In this document: one piece after another, positions 43,745 to 46,700 of the stretch
Numbering within the stretch: the stretch's first letter is position 1
How the letters are laid out: each line of letters begins with the position of its first letter
Assembly (NCBI GenBank): GCA_023052935.1
Contig: CM041298.1
Span: forward strand, 62,738,217-62,802,216
Source: Piezodorus guildinii
Taxonomy: Eukaryota; Arthropoda; Insecta; Hemiptera; Pentatomidae
DNA length: 64,000 nt
Direction of reading: 5' to 3'
Notes under the pieces: model-generated
What the model was told of the DNA's origin: nothing
Databases searched by the model: none
Seen by the model: the letters and a program-made list of their open reading frames with translations, nothing else
Program-made: the position numbers and the translations under genes

Positions 43745-46700
43745 CTACCCCCTCCTTAGACGTGCTCTGCCCCAGAGCACAGATTGCAGAAGCTGAGCGA
43801 TGCTGATCTTCCTCCGATGTAGGTGTTTTGTCTTTCCAGGGGTTGAACGTGCATACCATTATGATGACTCCAGAGTTGGCGAACGTCTCTTCTACAATGT
43901 TCCTGACAATCCTCCACTCCAGGCCATCGTATCCACAACCCAACTTCGGGATGGCGAGCTTGGTGACACGCAGTTCCAGAAGCTTTCTCCGCAGGTCGTC
44001 AAGACTCCGGCGCAGTGTGTCGTATGTCGGCCTCTGCTCTGATGAACTCTTGGTAACCAAGTAAAACAGGTGCCGGCCTTCATGCTCTTGATGGAGAGTC
44101 TTCCCAACTCTTGGTCCCTGGCGTTCCAGCTCTTCAATTCCAGCGAACTTCTTCCTGAAGACCGTCGCAATCCCCCGGGAATCCCTCAGATGTTCGGCGA
44201 CACAATGTGCTAGAGCATAGTCTACCGGTAACGAGAATATGTCTCTGTAAACTGTCTGCGTTACCCTACGGGAGTCTGGCGCCTTAGGATGGGGAGTTAG
44301 GTCCTTGTCGGTGAGGTTCCTCACTTGCTGTTCCTCTGTAGGGCCATGGTTTCCCTTGTATGGAGCCAATCGGTTGAAATGGACTACCTTGGGTTTTCCT
44401 TTGGGCTGCTTCCTGATCCTATAGATGACGTCATTGATCCTCTTGATGACCTCATACGGTCCGTCCCAGGAGTTTTGAAGTTTTGGTGAGTAGCCTTGCC
44501 TTCTTCGAGGATCGTGTAGCCAGACCAAGTCCCCAGGTTGGAAGCCACCTTTCTCTGCCTTGATGTCGTAACGCTCCTTCATTCTGTCACTTGCTCCCTG
44601 GATGTTTGTGCGAACCTTCTCGTGAATAGTGTTCATTCGCTTCCGTAGGTTCGTGACGTAGTCTTCTCCGGCGACCTCCTCATCAGGCTTGAAACCGAAT
44701 TTCAGATCGCAAGGCAAGCGTAGTTCTCTGCCGAACACGACATTGGCGGGGGTCTGCCCTGTCGTTTCATTAACTGAACTACGATAGGCTAGCAGGAAGA
44801 GATGAAGATATTGGTCCCAGTCTCGCTGATGGTCAGAAACTACCTTGGCCAAATATCGACCCATTGTCCTGTTCATGCGCTCTACCATGCCATCGGACTG
44901 AGGGTGAAGAGGCGTCGTCCTGGTCTTTCGTATTCCTAGAGCCTCGCACATCCTGGTGAAGACTGCCGACTCAAAGTTTCTTCCTTGGTCAGCGTGAAGT
45001 TCCATGGGCACCCCAAACCGACTGACGAGCTGCTTCACGAGAACATCTGCAACCGTGGTGGCCTCCTGATTCGGAAGGGCGTAAGCTTCCACCCACTTTG
45101 AAAAATAATCCATGGCCACGAGAATATATCGGTTGCCATTATCTGTCACAGGAAAAGGGCCAGCGATGTCCACCGCTATTCTCTCGAATGGTGCTCCTAC
45201 GTTGTATTTCTTCATAGGTGCCTTCTTTTTCCTTATCGGTCCATTAGAGGCGGCACAAGTTGCACACCGCCGGCACCAATCTAACACATCGTCCTTGAGG
45301 TTTGCCCAGTAAAAGCGTTCACGAACCTTTTCTAATGTCCGGTGAACTCCAAGGTGGCCACCAGATGCTCCATCATGTAATTCCCTCAGTACTTCGGGCA
45401 CTTTAATCTTTGGTACGATGAGCTGTAGTCTCCGCTGATCTCCCTCTGTGTTCTCCAATGCTCGTTTCAGCAGACCTTTGTCCAGTAGAATGGAGTCCCA
45501 TTGAGCCCAATAGGTTTTTATATTTTTCGACATTGGAGCAACATCCTGCCAGCTTGGTCTCCTTTGGCCTGATAGCTTCCATTCCCTTATTTGTTTCAAG
45601 TCCGGGTCCTCGTCCTGTTCCTTTGCCAGTCGTGTGTCCTGCCAACCGTCGGTAACGACCGTAGTCCGCAACACTGTTGTTTGCTTTTCTTCTTGTCGAG
45701 AACAATGCTTGCATTCTCCGTCACAGGGTCTCCTTGAGAGCGCATCCGCATTCCGGTGACTCGTTCCAGAACGATGAGCAGATTCGAAGTCATATTCCTG
45801 AAGGCGCTCGATCCACCGTGCAACTTGTCCCTCCGGTGACTTGAATCGCAGCAGCCACATTAGAGCTGCGTGGTCCGTTCTCAGTAGAAATCTTCTTCCA
45901 TACAGGTATTTATGAAAGTGCTCTATGGACTTAACCACTGCCAGAAGCTCTTTCCTTGTGACACAGTAGTTGCGTTCTGGAGCTGACAGTGCTTTGCTGA
46001 AGTACCCAATAACCTTTTCTTCCCCGTCTTGGAGTTGGGAAAGGACGCTTCCAATAGCAGTGTTGCTGGCATCTGTGTCAAGAATGAACTTGCCCTCGGG
46101 ACGTGGATAGCTTAGAATAGGCGCACTACTCAATTTCTTCTTTAACTCCTCAAATGAAGCCTGACACTCGCGATCCCAAAGGAAAGTCCGTTTTTCCTCA
46201 GTGAGCCTGGTAAGAGGTTTTGCGATGTTGGCGAATCCTTTCACGTACCTCCTGTAGTAGGTGCAGAGTCCGAGGAAACTTCTCACTTGGTGCTTATCTC
46301 GAGGTGCTGGCCAATTGGTGATCGCTGTAATCTTCTCTGGGTCAACAGCAACTCCGTTGTCTGATACAACATGCCCCAGGTAGTTGACTTGCCTTCGGAA
46401 GAGATTGCACTTCTTCGGGTTCAGTTTTAGATTGGCTGCACGCAGCCGTTCGAAGACCCGCTCCAGATTCTCCAGATGGTGAGTAAAGGATTTTCCCAGT
46501 ACAATGATGTCGTCCAAGTAAACCAGGCATATCTCCCAAGAAAGGCCTCTTAAGACGCTTTCCATCAGCCTCTCGAACGTTGCAGGAGCATTGCAAAGCC
46601 CGAATGGCATTACCGTAAATTGCCAGAGGCCAGTGCCGATTGAAAATGCCGTCTTCTCCTTATCTTCCGGTGCCAATCCAACCTGCCAATATCCACTGCG

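What the first reader, a model, noticed from the sequence alone, without database searches (positions are those of the whole stretch)
43836..44258. Ty3/Gypsy polyprotein fused to an OARD1/TARG1-type macro domain
The gag-pol frame does not end after integrase. It continues into about 140 residues that follow OARD1 without a gap between the positions of Asp20, Gly43, Lys84 and Asp125, all conserved with identical spacing. The catalytic Lys/Asp pair is kept (AAG at 44051-44049, GAT at 43928-43926). The domain is intronless, in frame and inside a recent insertion with apparently identical LTRs, so it has probably been maintained by selection on the element. Hypothesis: the element encodes a deADP-ribosylating enzyme that counters PARP-type modification of integrase, capsid or target-site DNA-repair factors, by analogy with macro domains used by some RNA viruses. 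I cannot tell whether this fusion is already described.
Basis: partly seen in the sequence, partly recalled or inferred. Interest (0 to 1): 0.93.

Follow-up and report, generated by a model that had tools for sequence, protein, structure and literature searches.

The report
Jumping gene fused to macro domain
A lineage of insect retrotransposons carries, welded to the end of its copying machinery, a domain whose animal relatives remove ADP-ribose tags from proteins and nucleic acids, and it has kept the catalytic residues across many families, which hints that undoing such tags helps these elements to spread.

Summary
The window carries a Ty3/Gypsy element (43182-49792, minus strand; 563-bp LTRs identical; 4-bp target duplication AGAG) whose single 1809-codon frame runs gag-PR-RT-RNaseH-integrase and on into a 141-residue OARD1/TARG1-type macro domain (43836-44258). 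It aligns to OARD1 over 134 residues without a gap (E 8e-31); AlphaFold gives a confident model (pLDDT 95.5). It is not a one-off: at least 150 copies in this genome, and 25 other element-type domains from named Hemiptera and Coleoptera and from unnamed records. They form one clade apart from other OARD1-type proteins (99/97), follow the pol tree, keep the catalytic Lys in 26 of 26 and Asp in 25 of 26 (one cut short), share a Ser/Thr/Pro-Arg/Lys change in loop 1, and in 10 of 16 polyproteins have a CCCH finger behind the macro domain. I read this as one old capture kept by selection on the element. Pfam's Macro model scores it below cut-off. Ten paper searches, some with capped lists, showed only a passing mention of macro-domain ORFs in fish endogenous retroviruses. 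Best reading: a Pol-borne ADP-ribosylhydrolase that undoes host ADP-ribosylation. Activity and target are inferred; an ADP-ribose-reading integrase tether is the main rival. Host OARD1 was not recovered.

The parts
43836..44258 (-). OARD1/TARG1-type macro domain, residues 1633-1773 of the polyprotein; catalytic Lys codon 44051-44049, Asp codon 43928-43926
43725..49154 (-). single open frame gag-PR-RT-RNaseH-IN-macro, 1809 codons; TGA stop 20 bases inside the 3' LTR
43182..43744 (-). 3' LTR, 563 bp, identical to the 5' LTR
49230..49792 (-). 5' LTR
43178..43181 (.). target-site duplication AGAG, left copy (right copy 49793-49796)
44259..44357 (-). variable linker between integrase C-terminal SH3/p58_C domain and macro domain
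   Evidence: mean identity 31% across pairs of 13 polyproteins against 56% for macro
44358..44534 (-). integrase C-terminal domain (SH3_Tf2-1 / Integrase_p58_C)
44901..45416 (-). integrase zinc-binding H2C2 and catalytic core (rve)
45792..46178 (-). RNase H
46368..46847 (-). reverse transcriptase
47553..47807 (-). aspartic protease
47943..47990 (-). CCHC zinc knuckle of gag; Pfam 13.1 bits against a cut-off of 20.8, so a weak match
49020..49124 (-). SAP domain at the gag N terminus
   Evidence: 41.6 bits, cut-off 23.9

Best explanation
The domain is a captured animal OARD1/TARG1-type ADP-ribosylhydrolase that travels as the C-terminal part of Pol, next to integrase, and is perhaps freed by the element's own protease in the variable linker. 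It most likely strips mono-ADP-ribose (Asp/Glu-linked, or on DNA/RNA phosphate ends) from element proteins, element nucleic acid or target-site chromatin, undoing a host PARP response to reverse transcription or integration. Shown: the fusion; supported by trees and residues: single origin, long co-inheritance with pol, conserved catalytic dyad, constraint. Inferred: catalysis, protease release, target and anti-defence role.
For: Ungapped match to OARD1 and profile match E about 1e-45. Catalytic Lys in 26 of 26 element-type domains, Asp in 25 of 26 (the other ends before it), residue matching Gly43 in 26 of 26. AlphaFold pLDDT 95.5, pTM 0.90. Integrase lies before the macro domain in the 13 polyproteins aligned. 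One clade: 16 of 16 rows, support 99/97, and 25 of 25 rows in a larger quick tree. All four starred groups of the macro tree of 13 polyproteins are also in the pol tree. With mean RT identity of 80% across families, a neutral domain would not stay 56% identical (figures; the inference is mine). TARG1's mechanism through Lys84 and its activity on protein and nucleic-acid ends: PMC7050489 (passages). PARP and PARG RNAi raised R1 expression, PARG RNAi also R2, in Drosophila S2 cells: PMC3024428 (passages).
Against: No activity or expression data. All 26 element domains have Ser/Thr/Pro-Arg/Lys where the other rows mostly have Gly-Ala, Gly-Lys or Gly-Gly in loop 1, near the distal ribose by my recall of macrodomain structures; this could weaken hydrolysis. 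The domain changes faster than RT and IN across families and than the IN C-terminal domain within the genome (L031 even 6 nonsynonymous against 1 synonymous). The PARP result in PMC3024428 does not fit a simple model: losing PARP or PARG derepresses elements, so it links ADP-ribosylation to silencing without showing that erasing helps an element.
Confidence: 0.52

Rival explanations
1. The macro domain is mainly a reader: an ADP-ribose-binding tether at the integrase C terminus that steers integration to ADP-ribosylated chromatin or breaks, by analogy with the chromodomain that chromoviruses carry at the same place (recalled).
For: Position behind the integrase C-terminal domain in the 13 polyproteins aligned; loop-1 change in 26 of 26; a CCCH finger, which may bind nucleic acid, follows in 10 of 16 polyproteins.
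Against: The Lys/Asp dyad, needed for hydrolysis rather than for reading, is kept in 26 of 26 and in 25 of the 25 that reach it.
Confidence: 0.25
2. The hydrolase serves the element's own DNA: it clears ADP-ribose from DNA or RNA ends of the reverse transcript or from the gapped integration intermediate, without any host-defence role.
For: TARG1 acts on ADP-ribosylated phosphate ends and DarG on thymine adducts (PMC7050489, passages); the domain also matches DarG models.
Against: No evidence that Ty3/Gypsy ends are ADP-ribosylated; other Gypsy elements do without the domain (recalled).
Confidence: 0.18
3. Passenger: a chance transduction of a host OARD1 cDNA that spread by hitch-hiking and has no function.
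For: Within the young own-genome family one of six copies compared shows more nonsynonymous than synonymous change per site (L031, 6 against 1, dN/dS 1.87).
Against: Same fusion in beetle elements (Callosobruchus P0121, P0122) whose RT is 78 and 72% identical to the window's; catalytic residues kept; window against L058 dN/dS 0.20, Fisher p 3e-4.
Confidence: 0.03
4. Misassembly or a host gene fused by annotation error.
For: None found for the window; two relatives sit in an assembly labelled Erysiphe pulchra, perhaps contaminated.
Against: At least 150 copies at 98-100% identity in this genome, all 150 scored open across the domain; several species and sources.
Confidence: 0.01

Closest known systems
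Animal OARD1/TARG1/C6orf130 (ALC1-like macrodomain hydrolase)
   Same: Ungapped over 134 residues, same catalytic Lys and Asp; confident macro-like model.
   Different: Part of a retrotransposon polyprotein; a separate clade on a long stem; Ser-Arg instead of Gly-Ala in loop 1; Arg119 and the closing Asn-Pro typical of the element clade.
Ty3/Gypsy (Metaviridae) elements, including chromoviruses
   Same: LTRs, PR-RT-RH-IN order, polypurine tract, short target duplication; an extra domain behind integrase as with the chromodomain (recalled).
   Different: The extra domain is a TARG1-type macro domain, in 10 of 16 polyproteins followed by a CCCH finger.
Fish endogenous retroviruses with macro-domain ORFs (Basta et al. 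2009, cited in PMC4977317; passages read; original not seen)
   Same: A retroelement that carries a macro domain.
   Different: Mentioned there as an additional ORF in fish retroviruses, not as a domain fused to Ty3/Gypsy Pol in insects; relation of the domains not tested.
Viral macrodomains of (+)RNA viruses
   Same: Macrodomain in a viral polyprotein that counters host ADP-ribosylation (listing with starts of abstracts seen).
   Different: Those are MacroD-like without the catalytic Lys (recalled); here TARG1-like.
DarG antitoxin
   Same: Same ALC1-like class (PMC7050489, passages); P0001 hits DarG models at 2.4e-10 and 5.8e-14.
   Different: Score far below the DarG equivalog cut-off (40 against 250 bits); not in a toxin operon.

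Membership tests
Ty3/Gypsy LTR retrotransposon | Pol order PR-RT-RNaseH-IN | tested here: met
Ty3/Gypsy LTR retrotransposon | Two LTRs TG...CA and a short (4-6 bp) target duplication | tested here: met
   563 bp, 100% identical, AGAG
Ty3/Gypsy LTR retrotransposon | tRNA primer site behind the 5' LTR, purine tract before the 3' LTR | tested here: inconclusive
   Purine tract seen; near the 5' LTR stands TGGTGTCAGAAGTGG, tRNA-Leu type by recall, no tRNA compared
Ty3/Gypsy LTR retrotransposon | Place in a named clade by RT tree with reference elements | not tested
   No reference RT set used; clade left open
OARD1/TARG1 hydrolases | Sequence homology along the whole domain | tested here: met
   E 8e-31, ungapped; profile E about 1e-45
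OARD1/TARG1 hydrolases | Catalytic Lys84 and Asp125 | tested here: met
   26 of 26 and 25 of 26, one cut short
OARD1/TARG1 hydrolases | Gly-x-Gly loop 1 (residues 41-43; a usual rather than a strict feature) | tested here: not met
   Gly43 kept 26 of 26; residue 41 is Ser 24, Thr 1, Pro 1 of 26, against Gly in 87 of 97 other rows, 8 of which have Ser
OARD1/TARG1 hydrolases | Macro fold with ADP-ribose pocket | tested here: inconclusive
   AlphaFold pLDDT 95.5; comparison with TARG1-ADPr not possible, fold search off
OARD1/TARG1 hydrolases | Hydrolase activity | not testable with these tools
   needs purified protein
Pfam PF01661 Macro | Score above gathering cut-off 22 | tested here: not met
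   12.3 bits in the polyprotein, 18.2 alone; of six relatives scanned at E 0.01 only P0118 has a hit, 22.1 bits
Chromovirus | Chromodomain at the integrase C terminus | tested here: not met
   no chromodomain among the 23 Pfam families listed up to E 1

The most novel reading that the evidence does not exclude
A whole lineage of insect Ty3/Gypsy elements, found in Hemiptera and Coleoptera, carries its own active ADP-ribosylhydrolase as a dedicated counter-defence. This implies an undescribed PARP-based restriction of retrotransposons in insects, and an eraser that evolved new substrate preference through its Ser-Arg loop.
Probability: 0.33. Interest if true: 0.9.

Novelty: new variant of a known kind. 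Interest (0 to 1): 0.76.

Why it matters
Macrodomains of RNA viruses are prime evidence that ADP-ribosylation is antiviral. A retrotransposon lineage that keeps a different class of eraser (TARG1-like, not MacroD-like) points to the same conflict inside the genome, in insects, where I know of little work on PARP-based restriction. It makes the question directly testable with a 141-residue domain. It also widens the range of accessory domains behind integrase, shows that the Pfam Macro model misses this group, and suggests that some insect genes named OARD1-like are retrotransposon tails.

Tried and rejected
Viral-contig scan with the element profile: 40 loci at 28-40% identity; taken from identity and contig length to be phage or other virus genes, not annotated one by one, not used. 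Within-family variants (60 loci, up to 59 per codon): macro pN/pS 0.25, IN core 0.31, linker 0.88, tail 0.75 (one stop cell in the tail, gap codons 8 and 5 in two IN regions); weak, because those copies were picked by similarity of their macro protein. Pairwise dN/dS with the window for six of the 60 loci, chosen among the more divergent: L058 0.20, L047 0.31, L053 0.31, L057 0.41, L039 0.52, L031 1.87; only L058 has enough changes (13 synonymous, 9 nonsynonymous; Fisher p 3e-4); IN C-terminal values for the same six were 0 to 0.13 on few changes, so the macro domain is less constrained than integrase. Host OARD1 of this genome: sought with a mosquito OARD1; 150 of 507 candidates were scored, and all 150 cover the query in one piece at about 42-45%, as the element copies do; no host gene told apart. 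Donor: the tree does not say which animal OARD1 is nearest. Ser-Arg-Gly is not unique to elements: P0078 and P0113 also have it. The label 'element' is mine: 19 of 26 rows have integrase sequence in the same protein (P0010 by my reading of its start); the other seven (P0008, P0009, P0011-P0015) were labelled by similarity and by linker or purine-tract remnants, so their clustering is partly by choice. Rows dropped: 57 of 113 out of the tree, 7 of 123 out, P0005, P0119 and P0123 of 16 out.

Full report
What is there. The window holds an LTR retrotransposon on the minus strand between 43182 and 49792. Its LTRs (43182-43744, 49230-49792) are identical over 563 bp, it is flanked by AGAG on both sides, and taking it out leaves a LINE frame that reads on for 672 aa across the joint: a clean, very recent insertion into a LINE. 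One frame of 1809 codons (43725-49154) carries a SAP domain, a repetitive coiled-coil-like stretch (my reading), gag, a weak CCHC knuckle, protease, RT, RNase H, integrase with H2C2 and an SH3/p58-type C-terminal domain, then a linker of about 33 residues, then the macro domain (residues 1633-1773), then a tail of 36 residues translated through the purine tract to a TGA 20 bases inside the 3' LTR.

The domain. Against PDB sequences the best five hits are OARD1/C6orf130 entries, E about 1e-30, the first aligned over 134 residues without a gap; the next, 5m31 (Appr-1-p processing domain protein), is at 5.5e-6. With a profile of nine element domains the OARD1 match is about 1e-45. Pfam's Macro model gives only 12.3 bits in the polyprotein and 18.2 alone, under its cut-off of 22; of six relatives scanned one has a hit at E 0.01 or better, at 22.1 bits. 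Annotation that rests on Pfam would miss the fusion. AlphaFold, on 58 rows, gives mean pLDDT 95.5 and pTM 0.90, with a strand-helix order that I read as a macro domain. The planned comparison with TARG1-ADPr could not be run.

Copies. In the window's own genome (1.20 Gb, 434 contigs, unnamed) 150 of 543 candidates were scored; all 150 match at E 6.3e-91 or better, 98-100% identity, without a stop inside the domain. A beetle homologue as query again returned 150 scored places of 534, all without a stop, mosquito OARD1 150 of 507, one with an internal stop. So at least 150 copies exist, nearly all of those scored with an open macro domain; the scoring of best candidates favours intact ones. In eight copies examined at the gag-pol junction, three with an open frame of 1821 have gag and pol in one frame as in the window, five with a frame of 1444 have a length difference there that puts them in different frames; the long frame that ends in the macro domain is open in both kinds.

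Relatives elsewhere. A search with the C-terminal region, restricted to proteins of polyprotein length, gave five further Ty3/Gypsy polyproteins (P0002-P0006) and one RNA-virus polyprotein (P0007). A search with P0006 gave ten more (P0114-P0123), four of them named: three from Callosobruchus maculatus and one from Aromia moschata. Short gene models with the domain are named from Macrosteles quadrilineatus, Nilaparvata lugens, Brassicogethes aeneus, Aromia moschata, Leptinotarsa decemlineata and Molorchus minor; the last two retain an integrase C-terminal domain. Four of them (P0008, P0009, P0012, P0058) bear the NCBI name 'OARD1-like' and look like retrotransposon tails. Of 16 polyproteins cut out, 13 were aligned and have integrase before the macro domain; the other three list an integrase C-terminal model. 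A CCCH finger follows the macro domain in 10 of 16; one more ends inside it, one has lost its His, and WIN, P0002, P0003 and P0004 have none (finger models).

One capture, long kept. In a careful tree of 56 OARD1-type domains the 16 element rows form one group with support 99/97 on a stem of 0.5 changes per site; with 116 rows, 25 of them element, again one group, SH-aLRT 99. Seven of the 26 element rows were labelled by similarity, not by an integrase in the same protein. Among 13 polyproteins the macro tree has four starred groups (WIN+P0002; these with P0003 and P0004; P0006+P0114; P0121+P0122) and all four are in the pol tree; P0115+P0116 is in both; deeper forks of the macro tree are not resolved. 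Mean pairwise identity is 56% for macro, 80% RT, 81% RNase H, 77% integrase core, 31% linker. The residue matching Lys84 is Lys in 26 of 26, Asp125 is Asp in 25 of 26 (the other is cut off), Gly43 in 26 of 26, Asp20 in 24 of 26. Residue 41 is Ser 24, Thr 1, Pro 1, residue 42 Arg 23, Lys 3; of 97 other rows 87 have Gly at 41 and 68 Ala at 42. Presence in two insect orders fits age, but spread between hosts by horizontal transfer was not tested.

Selection at DNA level. The only own-genome pair with enough changes, window against L058, has 13 synonymous and 9 nonsynonymous changes, dN/dS 0.20, p 3e-4. Five other pairs gave 0.31, 0.31, 0.41, 0.52 and 1.87 on six to eight changes each. Counting variants in 60 loci gave pN/pS 0.25 for macro, 0.88 linker, 0.75 tail, but those loci were chosen by protein similarity, which lowers the macro value. 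The stronger argument is the protein-level one above.

How it works. TARG1 uses Lys84 and an acidic residue 125 to cleave ADP-ribose esters on Asp/Glu and phosphate esters at nucleic-acid ends, and interacts with PARP1 (PMC7050489, passages; that review prints Glu125, the sequence has Asp). With the dyad kept I expect the element domain to be such an eraser. As the last part of Pol it would be made with integrase and packed into the particle; the fast-changing linker is a plausible protease cut or flexible tether (inference). Where it acts is open. A link between PARP and retrotransposon silencing in insects exists: PARP and PARG RNAi raised R1 and PARG RNAi raised R2 in S2 cells (PMC3024428, passages), though this does not settle whether erasing helps an element.

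Novelty. Ten searches of the paper library were made. Five were short enough to be seen whole (1, 0, 9, 3 and 3 papers); the others showed only the top of longer lists (20 of 321, 25 of 5,645, 15 of 265, 8 of 780, 10 of 21). None of the titles and abstract starts seen describes an OARD1-type domain in a Ty3/Gypsy element. The nearest is a sentence in PMC4977317 on macro-domain ORFs in fish endogenous retroviruses, citing Basta et al. 2009 (original not seen). Subscription papers and Repbase were not available, so a prior mention cannot be ruled out. I call it a new variant of a known kind: retroelements do acquire accessory domains, and macrodomains are known in RNA viruses, but a TARG1-class domain fused to Ty3/Gypsy Pol did not appear in what I could search.

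Limits.

Noticed in passing
window 49020-49124: A SAP DNA-binding domain (41.6 bits, cut-off 23.9) at the N terminus of gag, followed by a repetitive coiled-coil-like stretch: unusual for a Gypsy gag as far as I recall.
   Followed up: no
P0007: A 2180-aa RNA-virus polyprotein (Pfam viral methyltransferase, helicase, RdRP_2, Macro) carries an OARD1-type macro domain (43% identity to the window's), outside the element clade: apparently a separate TARG1-class capture by an RNA virus.
   Followed up: partly
P0003, P0005: Two polyproteins of this insect-type lineage are filed under the powdery mildew Erysiphe pulchra; insect contamination or horizontal transfer.
   Followed up: no
P0005: Behind macro and CCCH finger the frame goes on into a coiled-coil-like stretch and a second gag: a chimaeric or tandem element.
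   Followed up: no
own-genome copies, L101-L108: Two forms of the family coexist: gag and pol in one frame (3 of 3 copies with open frame 1821) or in different frames (5 of 5 with open frame 1444).
   Followed up: partly
L061-L100: Forty IMG/VR loci encode macro domains of this type at 28-40% identity, many in large viral contigs.
   Followed up: no
window 40697-43181 and 49797-50737: A LINE (endonuclease-like and RT-like frames by my reading), split by the insertion; its frame is continuous across the empty site.
   Followed up: partly
window 15149-17161: A second LINE-like pair of frames on the plus strand (by reading, not searched).
   Followed up: no
P0008, P0009, P0012, P0058: Gene models named OARD1-like in leafhopper, planthopper and potato beetle look like retrotransposon tails, possibly a wider misannotation.
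   Followed up: partly
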